Shown piece after piece: positions 1,974 through 34,514 of a stretch of DNA of 43,066 nt. The notes under the pieces were generated by a model, which saw nothing but the letters and a program-made list of their open reading frames with translations, made no database searches and was not told the DNA's origin. The DNA is from Bacillota bacterium (GTDB lineage Bacteria; Bacillota; Limnochordia; DTU080; JAAYLA01), in contig JAAYLA010000376.1 in NCBI GenBank assembly GCA_012522135.1, positions 1-43,066 on the forward strand. Reading direction: 5' to 3'. How positions within the stretch are numbered: position 1 is the first letter of the stretch; every line of letters starts with the position of its first letter. The position numbers were made by a program, and so were the translations under genes.

Positions 1974-2702
1974 TCACGGGCCACGCGCTGCCTGGACGCG
2001 CCGGTTTGTGGCAGGTCGTATGGCACCTTTCCGATCGACCTCCGCCAAGGCCAGCCATTTTAAGCGCTGTGCACACACCTGTGAATATACACCATTCCAG
2101 GTGGTAACACCTTCCACACTCTCATCGTATGGCAAGACGAACGTATCGAGTCCCGCAAACGGGTTCCGGCCCCGCATTCCCCCGTTCAATATAATACGAA
2201 TCCGGCGAATATCGAGTCCTAGATCGCAAAGGCGACCCAGCATGATGTCGGTCGCTCGCAGGGCAAACGCGTCGGCGGTGGTCACGACCCAAATCACATG
2301 GGACAAGCTGAGCGCGCTGATGGTCGCAAGGTCAAGGCGATGACTCAGGTCGACGATGGCCCAGTCAAAGCCCCGAAATACGGCATTTAACGTGGCAGAC
2401 AGGTCGGAATGTTGGGCCGCAAGGGCGTCCCGCAGATCCATAGGCGCACCTACGAGACTTAAAGTGCGGTTGACGGGAACGGTTATTTTCTCCGGCGGGA
2501 AACGGTGGGCGTGGAGCAAGTGCCGCCCGGGCTGAACGCCGAGAGCGGAAGCCAAGACGCCGCCGCCGTGCAAGTCAAGGTCAACAAGGAGGGTCTTTCG
2601 CCCGCCCTCCGCCAGTCCATGGGCGAGATGGAGGCTAACGAAGGTCTTCCCGACGCCTCCCTTGCCGGACAGCACGGAGACGACCCGTGTTGCGTGCGTC
2701 AT
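1974..2702 (-). CDS. MinD/ParA-family P-loop ATPase
   Basis: A 242-aa protein with the deviant Walker A motif SGKGGVGKT (residues 12-20, including the signature Lys near residue 14) and a Walker A' stretch LLVDLDLHGG. It has no TM or partner domain. The middle carries DWAIVDLSH in the Walker B position. Such ATPases dimerise on ATP and position or assemble things (Min system, ParA, CpaE pilus, FlhG). Which of these applies here is not shown: no minC, parB, cpa or flagellar gene is nearby. I see no obvious MinD C-terminal amphipathic helix. The start codon overlaps a plausible ribosome site (AGGGTGAT) at the end of the structured region upstream. Bacillus has no such gene between rpe and rpmB. 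Confidence 0.75.
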   Translation of the reverse strand: MTHATRVVSVLSGKGGVGKTFVSLHLAHGLAEGGRKTLLVDLDLHGGGVLASALGVQPGRHLLHAHRFPPEKITVPVNRTLSLVGAPMDLRDALAAQHSDLSATLNAVFRGFDWAIVDLSHRLDLATISALSLSHVIWVVTTADAFALRATDIMLGRLCDLGLDIRRIRIILNGGMRGRNPFAGLDTFVLPYDESVEGVTTWNGVYSQVCAQRLKWLALAEVDRKGAIRPATNRRVQAARGP

Positions 2703-2732
2703 GGCGGATCACCCTGATTGCGTATGTGTGCG

Positions 2733-3218
2733 CGAGGCCGACAGCCAACCAGGGTGTCGTACCCGTGTGCTATGCACCCGATCGGTTGCAAGCCACTCCC
2801 GGCTGCCGGGGTCCCACCACCGGTCGTGCCCAACGGGGGGGTTCCCCCCTTTCGGGTGTTTTTTTATTGTGTGAACGAGGTGCACCCCGTCGGGTGCGGG
2901 ACATTCCAGCAGCCGAGGTGCCGCACCGGTCGTGTATGCCAAGGACTCCTCCATCGCCTCTATATGATTTTTGATGTAATGACCTGCCCCCACATTGGGG
3001 GCGCCACTCCTCGCAGCTAGGACCAAACGCCGGTCATGTCCAAGGGATGAAACCCCAAAGGGTGCTTCATAATCGTCTACAATCCCGGAAGTTTGATTAT
3101 CCTAGCCGGTATGCGATACGATGCGTGCGAATAAGGACGCTTACAAGCCATGCACAGGATAGGCTGCTATTTTCACCCCCTTACTGGTTGGGCGAACACC
3201 CCCTGGTTGACTGTCGGC
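2733..3218 (-). ncRNA. Candidate large structured RNA or long structured leader of the MinD-like gene
   Basis: This 0.6 kb interval (2703-3304) contains no recognisable gene. The predicted transcript starts near 3218, seven bases past a strong promoter. Its first 23 nt (3218-3196) can pair with 2757-2737 to give 21 base pairs with one G-U and a 2-nt bulge, closing a loop of about 440 nt. Inside are many local hairpins: GCCCCC/GGGGGC with a 5-nt loop around 2991-3007, GCACCC/GGGTGC near 2881-2896, CCCGG/CCGGG near 2798-2810, and GNRA-like loops in CCCGAAAGGG and GGGGAACCC around 2843-2856. CACGACCGGTG occurs twice (2934-2924 and 2828-2818). I found no RNase P, tmRNA, SRP RNA, T-box or common riboswitch signature. 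No terminator follows, so it may be a 5' leader of the MinD-like gene. A transposon-like element with inverted ends is the main alternative. Confidence 0.45.
2829..2865 (+). terminator. Possible rightward intrinsic terminator inside the structured region
   Basis: On the plus strand a G7/C6 hairpin (2835-2849), extended by CCC (2829-2831) pairing with GGG (2854-2856), is followed by a run of seven T (2859-2865). No rightward gene ends just before it, so it may only stop read-through from rpmB. On the opposite strand the same bases form the GNRA-like hairpins of the RNA candidate. Confidence 0.35.
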
Positions 3219-3224
3219 GAGGCC

Positions 3225-3254
3225 AGTATACCCAACCGGCCGGCAACTTGTCAA
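3225..3254 (-). promoter_or_regulatory. Strong sigma-A promoter for the structured region / MinD-like gene
   Basis: On the minus strand: TTGACA (3254-3249), 18-nt spacer, TATACT (3230-3225). The AT-rich stretch just upstream (3255-3300) resembles an UP region. The expected transcription start, about 3218, coincides with the first base of the long terminal pairing of the structured element. Confidence 0.75.
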
Positions 3255-7184: not shown

Positions 7185-9779
7185 TCACGGCCTGTTCGCA
7201 CCCACTGCGCCGCTGGCGACGTACTCGGCGCTGCGCTGGGCAATCGGTCCAGCCCCGTACGCACCCGACCCACCGTTCTCTACCAAGACCGCAAACGCCA
7301 CGGCGGGCTGCCTGGCAGGTGCGAAACCGATAAACCATGCGTGAGGCTCTCCATGTGGATTCTCAGCCGTACCGGTCTTTCCTGCCAGAAGCGACGGGTC
7401 GATCCTTCCCGCGAAGGTGCCTTCGGCGACGGCCTTGCGCAAGCCCTCCTGTAGAATCTCCGCCGTTTCGGGACTGACCGCCCGGATCGGGGCCGTCCGC
7501 ACGCCTGCAGCAAGCCGGCCCGCCGCCTCAAAATGCGTTACAAGGTGAGGATAAACCCGGTAACCCCCGTTGGCAATGACAGACGTCACAAGAGCCATCT
7601 CGAGGGGCGTTACCAGAACATCCCCCTGCCCGATGCCCGCGGCTGCCAACTGCACCGAGGACTGCAGACTGCCGAGCCGCCCTGCCCGGTAGGGAATCTC
7701 AAACCCAGGCTGATCACCGATACCCAACGCATGGCTCTGCAGGCGGAGGGGCTCCGGACCAAGTGCGACGGCCAAGCGGACAAAAACGACGTTCGACGAG
7801 AGAGCCAAAGCCTCAGCGGGTGACAGTCGGCCGAGGGCCCTGCCTCCTGCGTTCTGGACGACATAGCCGTCGATCACGATGCTGCCGCCGTCGTCCCACC
7901 GTGTCTCGGACGTAACGAGTCCACCTTCTAACGCGGCGGCAAGAACAACCGGTTTAAAGGCCGAGCCCGGCGGATAAAGCCCCTGCGTAGCACGGTTGAG
8001 CAAAGGGCTGCGCTCGTCTGCGAGCGCGTCGGACGTCACGAGGCCCGCGGCCGGCCTCGGCGAACTCGCCATCGCGAGCACGGCACCGCTCCACGGATCG
8101 AGCACTACCACCGCGCCCGTAAGATCGCCGAGGGCCTGTTCCACCACTTCCTGCAGAGCCAGGTCAATCGAAGTATGCACGCGCGTCGCGCCCGCGGCAA
8201 CGCCCCCTCCGGTGATCCCGCGACTCAGTGCGCCGTCGAAGGTGCGTTCGAGACCTGCAGTACCGTACCGGGGGTGAACGTAACCTACCGTGTGAATCAA
8301 CGACGGCAGAACGGGCAGACGCATCCCCGGTTCGACCGCCGTGGTGAGATTTTCTCCGCTCCGTGAGACGATTCCTCCCCTAAGCTCGGCGGATACGGCC
8401 ATACGCAGGGCCACGGCGCGAGGGTGCGCGAGCAACCTGGGCCCCGCTACTAGCGTCCAATAGACTAGGGGAAGACCGACCAGGAGCCCGAAGGGCAGTG
8501 CCCATGCAAGAGCGCGAACGGGACGCGGCGCGCCCTTACACCTGCTTTGGGGGCCGGTCGAAGGTGTGTGACCTAGCGCGAGCAACAGAAAGGTCGCCAG
8601 AAGGGAACTTCCGCCATAGCTGACCAGGGGTAGGGTGATGCCCACTACCGGCGTGATGCCCACGGCTCCCGTACAGGCGAGGAGAGCCTGCACGCCCAAG
8701 AGAAGCCCGCACCCGACGCCGAGTTGACGCTCGAAGCCTTCCGTCTGGCCCCACGCCCTTTGGAGTAAAGATGCGACCAGTCCCGCCAGCAAGCCGATCA
8801 CAAGGAGCCCGCCGGCCAGGCCGATCCGCTCGACAAGACCAACTAAGGGCAGATCGGTGGCAGACGCCGGCACGTCGATCACGCTTCCGTACCAACCGTT
8901 GCCGCTCCAGCGTCCGTGAGCCAGAGCGAAACGAGCCTGCACCGACTGGAAGCCCGCGTCGAAGGGATCGTCCCACGGCGCGAGCCAAGCAGCAAAACGT
9001 CTCGTCAGGTGAGGATAGCGGTGTACGAGCAAGAAACCGCCCGCGGCAACGGGCAAGGCTGCCCCGGTCACATACGGCAGCGGCGTCCCGGCGGCGAGGG
9101 CCCACGCCATTCCTGTCAGGACGATTACCAGCACCGGTCCGAAGTCCCTTTGGATAGCCGCGGTGACCAAAGCCGCAAAGGTCGTCAGCAGGGGCAGCAC
9201 ATACGCACGCAGGGGAACCCGGTCGCGGGCAGACAGAAGCGGAGCCCAGCATGGGATGAGAAGCACTTGAACGAACTGGATCGGCTGCACGGCGTAGGCG
9301 CCCAATGGTAGCCAGCTGCGGGAGCCGCCAACGGATCTTCCGACGAACGCCGTCAGGGCCAGCACCAACGTCGCGAGCGCGGCGATGTACATGCGACGGG
9401 CCAAGAACCACCCGACGAGCGCCGGTCGCATAGAGGCGAAAAGGACTGCGCCACACAGTAACCAGACCATTTGTCTGAAAGCCAGCTGCGGCTCGTCGGT
9501 GCGCAGCAAAGCGAGGGAAAGGGCGGTGAGCGGCGCCGCCCAGATCAAGATCCGCTGATCGGCCCGCGTGCGTGTGCCCGCTACGAGCCACGCGAGGAGG
9601 TACACGGCGGCCGCGCGCCAGCCCTCGGCCTCCGGGAACACGGCTGCGACAATGCCGGCACCGGCGAGGAGAACGGCAGGATACGCGCCAGGCACAAGGG
9701 CGCGTAAGCGGCAGTCACGGCTGAGGCAGTTCGAGTACGACCACAGTGATATTATCGGGCCCTCCCCTGGCGTTCGCAA
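7185..9779 (-). CDS. SEDS glycosyltransferase-class B PBP fusion (RodA/FtsW + PbpA in one chain)
   Basis: A single uninterrupted frame of up to 864 aa joins the two halves of a peptidoglycan synthase. Residues about 30-405 are a SEDS polytopic glycosyltransferase: QRDFGPVLVI (210-219), GFQSVQARFALAHG (276-289), TDLPLVGLVERIG (308-320, with the catalytic-type Asp309), and LPLVSYGGSSLL (383-394). A further TM segment (about 424-446) then anchors a PbpA-like transpeptidase with SAFK (606-609, active Ser), SSN (661-663) and KTG (801-803). Its pedestal is short, as in actinobacterial PbpA. The polymerase and crosslinker are usually separate neighbours in this position. The start is unresolved: the TTG at 9779 overlaps stp by about 65 nt, and a GTG at 9695 leaves little before TM1; neither has a good ribosome site. 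Confidence 0.9.
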   Translation of the reverse strand: MRTPGEGPIISLWSYSNCLSRDCRLRALVPGAYPAVLLAGAGIVAAVFPEAEGWRAAAVYLLAWLVAGTRTRADQRILIWAAPLTALSLALLRTDEPQLAFRQMVWLLCGAVLFASMRPALVGWFLARRMYIAALATLVLALTAFVGRSVGGSRSWLPLGAYAVQPIQFVQVLLIPCWAPLLSARDRVPLRAYVLPLLTTFAALVTAAIQRDFGPVLVIVLTGMAWALAAGTPLPYVTGAALPVAAGGFLLVHRYPHLTRRFAAWLAPWDDPFDAGFQSVQARFALAHGRWSGNGWYGSVIDVPASATDLPLVGLVERIGLAGGLLVIGLLAGLVASLLQRAWGQTEGFERQLGVGCGLLLGVQALLACTGAVGITPVVGITLPLVSYGGSSLLATFLLLALGHTPSTGPQSRCKGAPRPVRALAWALPFGLLVGLPLVYWTLVAGPRLLAHPRAVALRMAVSAELRGGIVSRSGENLTTAVEPGMRLPVLPSLIHTVGYVHPRYGTAGLERTFDGALSRGITGGGVAAGATRVHTSIDLALQEVVEQALGDLTGAVVVLDPWSGAVLAMASSPRPAAGLVTSDALADERSPLLNRATQGLYPPGSAFKPVVLAAALEGGLVTSETRWDDGGSIVIDGYVVQNAGGRALGRLSPAEALALSSNVVFVRLAVALGPEPLRLQSHALGIGDQPGFEIPYRAGRLGSLQSSVQLAAAGIGQGDVLVTPLEMALVTSVIANGGYRVYPHLVTHFEAAGRLAAGVRTAPIRAVSPETAEILQEGLRKAVAEGTFAGRIDPSLLAGKTGTAENPHGEPHAWFIGFAPARQPAVAFAVLVENGGSGAYGAGPIAQRSAEYVASGAVGANRP

Positions 9780-31211: not shown

Positions 31212-32242
31212 GCGATCGTGACTCCCTTTTCGCCTGCTTCGATCCGTCCGATCACGTGGGCCTGTTCGCCGTGTTTGCGCAAGACGGCCAGCGCCTCGTC
31301 GACGTCGCCGGGTGCCACGATCACGGCCATGGCGACGCCCATGTTGAAGGTGTTCCACATCACGTCATCGTCTAGGTCGCCTAGCTCCTGAAGCCAGGGA
31401 AATACGGCGGGCACGGGCCAGCTGTCCCGTTCGATCACCGCGTGGGTCCCGGCCGCCATGGCGCGGGGCAGGTTCTCCGGCAGGCCGCCGCCCGAGATGT
31501 TCGCTATGCCCCGTGCGAGCTCCCGTTCGGCCAGCTCGCAAATGGGCCGGGCGTAGATACCGGTCGGGCGCAGTAGCTCTTCACCGACCGTGCAGCCGAG
31601 CGCCTCGACGTACGTATCCGGTCTCAGCCCGGCCCGTTCGAAGACGACCTTGCGGACGAGGGAAAAGCCGCTGGATTGCAAGCCAGTCGACACAATGCCC
31701 AAAATGACGTCGCCGGGCCGCACTTTTTCGCCCGTGATCATCCGTGCACGGCTCACGACGCCGACGGCGAACCCGGCGATGTCGTACTCCCCCTCCGCAT
31801 AAAACCCGGGCATCTCGGCCGTCTCGCCTCCGATGAGCGCGCAGCCGGCCTGCCGACATCCTTCCGCGACGCCTGCTACGATGGCTTCCGCCTGGGCCGT
31901 TTCGAGCTTGCCGACGGCCAGGTAGTCGAGGAAGAACAGAGGCTCCGCTCCGTGGCAGATGATGTCGTTGACGCAGTACGCCACCGCGTCGATGCCGATC
32001 GTGTCGTGCTTGTTCATCATGAAGGCCACTTTCAACTTGGTCCCCACGCCGTCGGTACCCGCGACGAGGACGGGGTCAGGATGCCGCGCCAAGTCCAGGG
32101 CAAAAAGGCCGCCGAAAGAGCCGATCTCTTGCAACACTTCCTTGCGAAAGGTCGAGCGGGCGTGACCGCGCATGCGCCGCACCGCTTCGTACCCTGCCTC
32201 GATGTCCACTCCTGCCGCCTTGTACGTGAGCCGCTCATCCAT
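31208..32242 (-). CDS. purM: Phosphoribosylformylglycinamidine cyclo-ligase (AIR synthetase)
   Basis: ATP-dependent ring closure of FGAM to AIR. 344 aa, normal length. Typical motifs: VLVAGTDGVGTKLKVAF, CVNDIICHGAEPLFFLDYLA, GCALIGGETAEMPGFY, GLQSSGFSLVR, and HISGGG-like NISGGGLPENLPR. It starts 25 nt after purL with GAGGTACGG upstream and is coupled to purN. purF, which often lies between purL and purM, is absent. Confidence 0.97.
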   Translation of the reverse strand: MDERLTYKAAGVDIEAGYEAVRRMRGHARSTFRKEVLQEIGSFGGLFALDLARHPDPVLVAGTDGVGTKLKVAFMMNKHDTIGIDAVAYCVNDIICHGAEPLFFLDYLAVGKLETAQAEAIVAGVAEGCRQAGCALIGGETAEMPGFYAEGEYDIAGFAVGVVSRARMITGEKVRPGDVILGIVSTGLQSSGFSLVRKVVFERAGLRPDTYVEALGCTVGEELLRPTGIYARPICELAERELARGIANISGGGLPENLPRAMAAGTHAVIERDSWPVPAVFPWLQELGDLDDDVMWNTFNMGVAMAVIVAPGDVDEALAVLRKHGEQAHVIGRIEAGEKGVTIA

Positions 32243-32267
32243 GGCCGTACCTCCTCAATACCGAGCT

Positions 32268-34514
32268 TCAGACATCCTTCATCAGCTCGGGGATGGACCG
32301 CCGCCAAGCGTCCGCGAGCTCGCCGACGGCAAGCTCCACACGGCCGCTCGCGGGCGCTCCGGGTGTCCCCGTCACGTCGAGCACCAGGCGATCGCCTCCC
32401 GTGCGACCCAAAACCGCGACCGGCACACCTTCCGCCTGGGCAACAGCCATCGCTTTTTCTACGTCTTTTTCCGCCACCGAGACGACGATGCGCGATTGCG
32501 TCTCGCCGAACAGGAGGGCATCCGCCCGGAAGTCGGCCTGGAGCTTGAGGTCCGCCCCCCGTGCCCCGGCAATGCAGCATTCAGCCAAAGCGACCGCTAG
32601 GCCCCCTTCCGAGCAATCGTGGGCCGAGCGGGCGATGCCTTCGGTAATGAGCCGGCGGCACACCTTTTGCACGGCCAGCTCCCGCGAAAGGTCGAGGCTG
32701 GGCGGCTCGGGGCCAACGATTCCCTTGAGCGCCAAATACTCGCTGCCGCCGAGTTCGTTACGGTTTTCGCCCAAGAGCAGCACGACGTCGCCGTCCCCTT
32801 GCCAGCCGCTGCCGACGCAAAGGCTCACGTCGTCTACCCGCCCCACCATGCCGACCATGGGTGTCGGGTAGATGGCCTGTCCGCCGCTTTCGTTGTACAG
32901 GCTGACGTTGCCGCCGGTCACGGGAGTCCCGAAGGCAAGGCAAGCGTCCCGGATGCCGCGGACGGCCTGTTCGAGCTGCCAGAAAATCTCCGGGTTTTCG
33001 GGACTGCCGAAGTTCAGCCCGTCGGTGATCGCCAGAGGGGTGCCGCCGACGCAGCTGATGTTGCGGGCTGCTTCGGCCACCGCGATCTGCGCGCCGAGGC
33101 GAGGGTTCAAATAGACGTAGCGCGAGTTGCAGGCGACGGACAGCGCAATGCCCCGCGCACCGTCCCCTACCTGCACGACCGCCGCATCAGCCGCGCCGGG
33201 TCCGAAGACGGTCCTGCCACCGGCTTCACTGTCGAAACGGGAATACGCCCACTCCTTGCTTGCGACCGTGGGCGAGGCGAGAAGGCGCAAGAGCTCCGCT
33301 CCGAGATCCAGCGGCACGCCGGCCGGAACCTGCACCTTACGCACTGCCGCCAAGTACGCGGGCTCCCTGCTCTCGGGATGGTACAGGGGAGCCCCGTCGC
33401 TGGCCAAAGCGCGGGCCGGAACCTCTGCCGCGGTCCGTCCACCGTGCAGCACGCGCAACATGCCGTCGTCCGTCACGGAGCCCACGACCGCCGCCGGCAC
33501 GTTCCACCTTTCGGCCACGGCCAAGACCTTGTCCTCCGCGCCATTCTCAACGACGAGCAGCATCCGCTCCTGGGACTCCGAAAGCATCATTTCAAAGGGC
33601 GTCAGGTCCTCGTCCCGCACGGGCACCTTGTCCAGATCGAGCTCGATTCCCGTGCCCGCCCGCGCCGCCATCTCGGCCGCCGAGCTCGTCAGACCGGCCG
33701 CACCCATGTCCTGCACGCCGACGACGAGGCCCGCGGCAATGAGTTCCAAAGTAGCCTCGATCAGCCGCCTGCCGGTCTCGGGATCGCCGATGGCGACGGC
33801 GCTTTCCGGCACCTGCGCTTCGTCGCCCAGCTCCGCCGAAGCAAAGCTCGCCCCGTGCACGCCATCCCGGCCCGTCTTGCCGCCGAGCACGATGACCGGA
33901 TTGCCCACACCGTCGGCCCGGGCCCTTGCCACGCCACCGTGAGGCACGATGCCGACGGCCATGACGTTGACCAGCGGGTTACCCGAGTAGGACGGATCGA
34001 AGTAGATCTCTCCGCCCACGGTCGGTACCCCCACCGCGGCTCCGTAATCCGCAATGCCCTGCACGACGCCGGAAAAAATCTCCCGCACCCGGGATTCCGT
34101 CAGTGGACCGAAGCGCAGGGAGTTCAATACAGCCACGGGGCGCGCGCCCATAGCGAAGACGTCCCGCAGACACCCGCCTACCCCCGTGGCCGACGCTTCT
34201 ACGGGCGCCACGGCGGACGGGTGGTTGTGGGACTCGATCTTGAAGACTACGGCTAGGCCGCCTCCGATGTCGACGACTCCCGCGTTCTCGCCTGGACCTT
34301 CCAAGATCTGCGGGCCGGAAGTCGGAAAAAGGTGAAACAGGCTCCGGCTGTGTTTGTATGAGCAATGCTCCGACCACAGGCCGCTGAACATGCCGAGTTC
34401 GGTCCAGTTCGGAGCCCGCCCGAGCCGCTCTTTGATCAGCTCATACTCATAGTCGGTAAGGCCCAGCTCCCTCCAGGCCTTACGCTCTTCAATCTGCTTT
34501 ACGGTCGGTTCCAT
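32268..34514 (-). CDS. purL: Phosphoribosylformylglycinamidine synthase large subunit (small-type PurL)
   Basis: Converts FGAR to FGAM with ATP and ammonia delivered by PurQ. 748 aa: this is the short PurL that works as a PurL-PurQ-PurS complex, since the C-terminal glutaminase domain of the 1300-aa form is missing. Motifs: LWSEHCSYKHS near residue 50, IESHNHPSAVAP, GVGGCLRDVFAMGARP, VQDMGAAGLTSSAAEMA, and AHDCSEGGLAVALAEC near the C-terminus. Neither purQ nor purS lies next to it, although they normally sit directly upstream, so they must be elsewhere. Confidence 0.97.
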   Translation of the reverse strand: MEPTVKQIEERKAWRELGLTDYEYELIKERLGRAPNWTELGMFSGLWSEHCSYKHSRSLFHLFPTSGPQILEGPGENAGVVDIGGGLAVVFKIESHNHPSAVAPVEASATGVGGCLRDVFAMGARPVAVLNSLRFGPLTESRVREIFSGVVQGIADYGAAVGVPTVGGEIYFDPSYSGNPLVNVMAVGIVPHGGVARARADGVGNPVIVLGGKTGRDGVHGASFASAELGDEAQVPESAVAIGDPETGRRLIEATLELIAAGLVVGVQDMGAAGLTSSAAEMAARAGTGIELDLDKVPVRDEDLTPFEMMLSESQERMLLVVENGAEDKVLAVAERWNVPAAVVGSVTDDGMLRVLHGGRTAAEVPARALASDGAPLYHPESREPAYLAAVRKVQVPAGVPLDLGAELLRLLASPTVASKEWAYSRFDSEAGGRTVFGPGAADAAVVQVGDGARGIALSVACNSRYVYLNPRLGAQIAVAEAARNISCVGGTPLAITDGLNFGSPENPEIFWQLEQAVRGIRDACLAFGTPVTGGNVSLYNESGGQAIYPTPMVGMVGRVDDVSLCVGSGWQGDGDVVLLLGENRNELGGSEYLALKGIVGPEPPSLDLSRELAVQKVCRRLITEGIARSAHDCSEGGLAVALAECCIAGARGADLKLQADFRADALLFGETQSRIVVSVAEKDVEKAMAVAQAEGVPVAVLGRTGGDRLVLDVTGTPGAPASGRVELAVGELADAWRRSIPELMKDV

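What the first reader, a model, noticed from the sequence alone, without database searches (positions are those of the whole stretch)
2733..3218. Possible undescribed large structured RNA upstream of a MinD-like ATPase
A 0.49 kb gene-free segment has a near-consensus promoter (TTGACA-18-TATACT). Its predicted 5' end is exactly the first base of a 21-bp pairing with the far end (3218-3196 with 2757-2737). The interior is packed with GC hairpins, GNRA-type loops and a repeated CACGACCGGTG. End-to-end pairing plus tetraloops is what large ornate RNAs look like, and I could not match it to RNase P RNA, tmRNA, SRP RNA, T-box or common riboswitches. It replaces thiN-spoVM in the conserved rpe-rpmB interval.
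Basis: partly seen in the sequence, partly recalled or inferred. Interest (0 to 1): 0.75.

Follow-up and report, generated by a model that had tools for sequence, protein, structure and literature searches.

The report
Probable small mobile-element insertion, orphan
The gene-free 477-base segment is bounded by inverted repeats and an exact 8-base duplication of its target, so it is most likely a small non-coding mobile element that landed in the leader of a MinD-like gene, not a native giant RNA, although it does contain three unusual tandem structured repeats with no known relatives.

Summary
The described features are real: the promoter TTGACA-18-TATACT (3254-3225, - strand), the 21-nt end-to-end inverted repeat, the repeated CACGACCGGTG, and no Rfam match. 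An exact 8-bp direct repeat, GCGAGGCC, abuts the inverted repeats on both sides (2732-2739 and 3217-3224), the signature of a transposition target-site duplication. Removing the 477-bp insert and one repeat copy leaves an ordinary promoter, a short 5'UTR and a Shine-Dalgarno-like AGGGTGAT before the MinD-like ATG. It is best read as a non-coding, MITE-like insertion, transcribed in the MinD-like gene's leader.

Inside lie three tandem ~75-nt modules (~106-nt period), alike beyond chance, sharing a fold with four two-sided compensatory pairs. That suggests a structured RNA or DNA cargo, but three copies are too few for proof.

No homologue turned up in this genome, 73 class genomes, 399 phylum genomes, phages, plasmids or E. 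coli; an exact two-ended pattern found none in GTDB or IMG/VR contigs. The element is an orphan: no second copy, no autonomous partner, no empty site in a relative. MITE-like insertion is favoured at about 0.65; a native undescribed RNA gets about 0.17.

The parts
2740..3216 (-). the inserted non-coding element (477 bp; 2739-3216 if the duplication is counted as 7 bp)
   Evidence: bounded by inverted repeats and an exact 8-bp direct repeat; GC 0.58 against 0.64 for the window
2737..2757 (+). left arm of the terminal inverted repeat (the first 3 bases belong to the direct repeat)
3198..3218 (-). right arm of the terminal inverted repeat (the last 2 bases belong to the direct repeat)
   Evidence: a second CAACCAG...GGGGGTG lies just inside it at ~3190-3174 (read)
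2732..2739 (.). direct repeat GCGAGGCC, left copy (putative target-site duplication)
3217..3224 (.). direct repeat GCGAGGCC, right copy (putative target-site duplication)
3225..3254 (-). sigma-70-type promoter TTGACA-18-TATACT, outside the element, pointing into it and on to the MinD-like gene
2972..3046 (-). tandem module M1
2868..2945 (-). tandem module M2
2758..2836 (-). tandem module M3
1974..2702 (-). MinD/ParA-like ATPase gene downstream (242 aa), AAA_31 domain

Best explanation
A 477-bp non-coding element with ~20-bp terminal inverted repeats was inserted, by a transposase supplied in trans, into the 5'UTR of a MinD-like gene, and duplicated 8 bp of target (GCGAGGCC). The pre-existing promoter (3254-3225) now transcribes the element as a leader. 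In the RNA the two ends pair as a ~20-bp helix and enclose three tandem folded modules. This stays separate from the Shine-Dalgarno region, so translation initiation is predicted to be little changed. The long terminal helix could be an RNase III target that alters mRNA life, as reported for Correia elements. Shown: repeats, direct repeat, promoter match, modules, single copy. Inferred: transposition, transcription, processing.
For: Exact 8-bp direct repeat abutting both inverted-repeat ends; chance 4.7e-5 to 8.5e-4. Removing the insert restores a compact promoter-leader-gene arrangement with predicted pairing around the start codon about the same with and without the insert. Non-coding, under 500 bp, long terminal repeats, strongly folded transcript: the usual anatomy of prokaryotic MITEs (PMC10969869). 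Element absent from the rpe-rpmB interval of five same-order genomes. GC 0.58 against 0.64 for the window.
Against: Only one copy in this genome; no partner with the same ends in the genome and none seen in the class; no empty site available. The five same-order genomes also lack the MinD-like gene, so they are not true empty sites. A direct repeat of this length can arise by chance, and an inverted repeat of this quality alone is not rare.
Confidence: 0.65

Rival explanations
1. A native, undescribed large structured RNA of about 480 nt (a discrete RNA or a cis-acting leader of the MinD-like gene), closed by an end-to-end helix and built from three tandem domains. The flanking 8-bp repeat would be a coincidence.
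For: Fold z -5.75 on the - strand against -2.94 on the + strand; a G-U pair in the terminal helix and several in the modules favour the - strand as RNA; three modules share a 20-pair fold, 91% of cells paired, four two-sided changes; promoter placed so that the RNA would start at the helix.
Against: No homologue in any collection searched, whereas large structured RNA families are defined by conservation; exact direct repeat at the ends; single modules do not fold better than shuffles; 5' third unstructured.
Confidence: 0.17
2. A decayed insertion sequence or other degenerate mobile DNA: same ends, but the interior is eroded coding sequence, not a purpose-built non-coding element.
For: Terminal repeats plus duplication fit any insertion-sequence remnant; short ORFs remain in several frames.
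Against: No Pfam match in four ORFs across it, and three tandem modules with conserved hairpins do not look like eroded transposase.
Confidence: 0.12
3. The three tandem modules are a DNA site for the adjacent MinD/ParA-like ATPase system (a centromere-like partition site), not an RNA.
For: Three tandem repeats directly upstream of a MinD/ParA-like gene; partition operons often carry upstream repeats (own knowledge).
Against: The nearest genes are rpmB, rpe and rsgA, so no ParB-type partner is next to the gene; modules are long and diverged, unlike short iterons; they lie between promoter and gene.
Confidence: 0.03

Closest known systems
Prokaryotic MITEs (Correia/NEMIS, RUP, QMITE, Chunjie, MITEAba12; PMC10969869, PMC2229807)
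   Same: Non-coding, under 500 bp, terminal inverted repeats, target duplication, transcript predicted to fold strongly, lying in an intergenic leader.
   Different: Single copy in this draft genome, no autonomous partner found, GC 0.58 and not AT-rich, 8-bp duplication without the TA target of several families, and three internal tandem modules.
Insertion-sequence families with 8-bp target duplications (for example IS256, IS66, ISL3, IS1595, ISAs1; own knowledge)
   Same: 8-bp duplication and terminal repeats of similar length.
   Different: No transposase; the end sequence CGACAGYCAACCAGGG was not matched to any family, and no insertion-sequence library was available here.
Large structured bacterial RNAs (OLE, GOLLD, ROOL, HEARO)
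   Same: Several hundred nt, multi-hairpin, long-range pairing, gene-free.
   Different: No Rfam match, no homologues, and ends that coincide with a direct repeat.

Membership tests
Prokaryotic MITE | terminal inverted repeats | tested here: met
   19 of 21 complementary, 2737-2757/3198-3218
Prokaryotic MITE | target-site duplication | tested here: met
   exact GCGAGGCC on both sides; not proven by an empty site
Prokaryotic MITE | 50-500 bp and non-coding | tested here: met
   477 bp; no Pfam match in four ORFs across it
Prokaryotic MITE | several copies in the genome | tested here: not met
   one copy by DNA, end pattern and module model; the draft has 399 contigs, so repeats could be missing
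Prokaryotic MITE | autonomous partner with the same ends | tested here: not met
   end pattern with up to 3 mismatches found only here in the own genome
Large structured RNA family known to Rfam | match to a covariance model | tested here: not met
New large structured RNA | homologues conserved across species | tested here: not met
New large structured RNA | covarying base pairs | tested here: inconclusive
   three internal paralogous modules only; 4 two-sided pairs, covariation score reached by 13 of 500 shuffles, structure derived from the same sequences
New large structured RNA | expressed as a discrete RNA | not testable with these tools
   no transcriptome; only a promoter match

The most novel reading that the evidence does not exclude
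A mobile element whose cargo is itself a structured RNA: three tandem ~75-nt RNA domains inside transposon-like ends, kept by selection on the RNA fold and spread as an RNA-only mobile unit.
Probability: 0.12. Interest if true: 0.7.

Novelty: new member of a known kind. Interest (0 to 1): 0.3.

Why it matters
As a small orphan insertion it is one more case of a non-coding mobile element becoming a gene leader, and it shows how end-to-end pairing plus strong folding can imitate a large structured RNA. If the tandem modules prove to be a selected RNA carried by a mobile element, that would be a new kind of RNA-only mobile unit.

Tried and rejected
Rfam on the locus, the element and the whole window: only a tRNA elsewhere. 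DNA similarity in own genome, 60 relatives, 73 class genomes, 399 phylum genomes, plasmids, phages and E. coli: nothing beyond short chance hits. Two-ended pattern in GTDB contigs and IMG/VR: 0. Single-end pattern in IMG/VR: 0; in the class with up to 2 mismatches only unpaired hits, about as many as the control. Tandem-motif pattern in 399 phylum genomes and IMG/VR: the seven viral hits look like repetitive or ordinary coding sequence, and neither set scores well with the module model. Module covariance model in 73 genomes: only the three known modules; the next best, 25 bits at E 0.035, was treated as chance. Search for an ortholog of the MinD-like gene to find an empty site: none. The rpe-rpmB neighbourhoods of five same-order genomes, searched unfiltered with the module model: nothing. 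tRNA-like nature of the modules: weak mascRNA resemblance at E 1.4, no ARAGORN call there. Retron RNA and type III toxin-antitoxin RNA were considered because of end pairing and tandem repeats, but the adjacent gene is a MinD-like ATPase, not a reverse transcriptase or a ToxN-like nuclease. One script timed out without output.

Full report
OBSERVATION. The promoter, the end-to-end inverted repeat, the repeated CACGACCGGTG and the lack of an Rfam match are all confirmed. The - strand of the segment folds at -215.5 kcal/mol against a shuffled mean of -178.8 (z -5.75); the + strand gives z -2.94. Much of this comes from the terminal repeats and from the stretch holding the second and third modules: without the ends z is -3.1 (-) and -1.1 (+), the last two modules alone give -4.1, and the 5' third gives +0.8. 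Single modules are not significantly better than shuffles.

BOUNDARIES. An exact 8-bp direct repeat, GCGAGGCC, lies at 2732-2739 and 3217-3224, at the ends of the inverted repeats. The element is then 2740-3216, 477 bp; with a 7-bp duplication it would be 2739-3216 with symmetrical CGACAG...CTGTCG ends. In this window an 8-bp repeat at this spacing arises at 4.7e-5 for the exact boundary and 8.5e-4 with 25 boundary choices. Of three inverted-repeat hits of at least 16/18 at 200-1500 bp spacing in the window, only this one carries such a flank. The inverted repeat alone is not rare: block-shuffled windows gave 0 to 7 hits of at least 16/18. The inference of insertion therefore rests on the combination.

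CONTEXT. On the - strand the order is rsgA, rpe, promoter 3254-3225, element, MinD-like ATPase 2702-1974; rpmB converges from the other side. Without the insert and one duplication copy the leader reads TATACT-GGCCTCGC-GCACACATACGCAATCAGGGTGATCCGCC-ATG, a normal short leader with a Shine-Dalgarno-like AGGGTGAT. Predicted pairing around it is about the same with and without the insert. In five same-order genomes the rpe-rpmB interval (438-1096 bp) holds neither the MinD-like gene nor the element and no recognisable thiN, so 'replaces thiN-spoVM' is not a feature of this lineage.

INTERIOR. Three tandem modules, M1 3046-2972, M2 2945-2868 and M3 2836-2758, spaced about 106 nt, share CAYGACCGGYG, a CNG-triloop hairpin and a GC hairpin (GCCCCC/GGGGGC, GCACCC/GGGUGC, GCAACC/GGGUGC). 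Pairwise local alignment scores are 38, 41 and 54 against a background mean of 18.8, sd 4.3, maximum 43 in 2989 random pairs. RNAalifold finds a common fold of 20 pairs on the - strand; the + strand gives 15 pairs and a weaker energy. On the - strand fold 91% of cells pair, 4 pairs change on both sides, and the covariation score is reached by 13 of 500 shuffles. The structure was derived from these same three sequences, so this is suggestive only.

HOMOLOGUES. None found. Own genome: one copy, the terminal repeat only at these two places, modules only here. 60 relatives, 73 class genomes, 399 phylum genomes, phages, plasmids, E. coli, and exact two-ended patterns in GTDB contigs and IMG/VR gave nothing that holds up. 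No ortholog of the MinD-like gene was found that could show an empty site.

MECHANISM. Most likely a transposase acting in trans placed a short non-coding element in the leader of the MinD-like gene. The host promoter then transcribes it, and the ~20-bp terminal helix folds it off from the ribosome-binding site, so the gene can stay expressed. RNase III cleavage at the terminal helix, as reported for Correia elements (PMC10969869; PMC2229807), is a plausible consequence and is not shown here.

VERDICT. A MITE-like insertion by anatomy, but not filed as a MITE, because multiple copies and a partner element were looked for and not found. A native structured RNA remains possible (about 0.17). A mobile element carrying a selected RNA is the most novel reading not excluded (about 0.12). 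Missing copies could also reflect a fragmented draft of 399 contigs, in which repeats assemble badly.

Noticed in passing
window 7185-9779 (-): One 864-aa ORF joins a FtsW/RodA/SpoVE domain (96-401) to a penicillin-binding transpeptidase domain (555-847): an apparent natural SEDS-PBP fusion.
   Followed up: no
L169 3720-3840, L170 3130-3170, L171 2950-2985, L172 1040-1070, L173 1090-1115: The rpe-rpmB interval of all five same-order genomes holds a near-invariant 20-nt block TCCCTCAYGGGCATGGCTGG behind an A-rich run, with no consistent reading frame. A close variant lies in an intergenic stretch of three genomes of family f4 (L210-L212). The window's own interval lacks it.
   Followed up: partly
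window 31896-32344: Another inverted repeat, 16 of 18 matches, ~420 bp apart, without a flanking direct repeat.
   Followed up: no
window 3174-3209: The right end of the element carries two direct copies of CAACCAG...GGGGGTG about 20 nt apart, as transposase-binding sites sometimes do (read; one search lists part of it).
   Followed up: no
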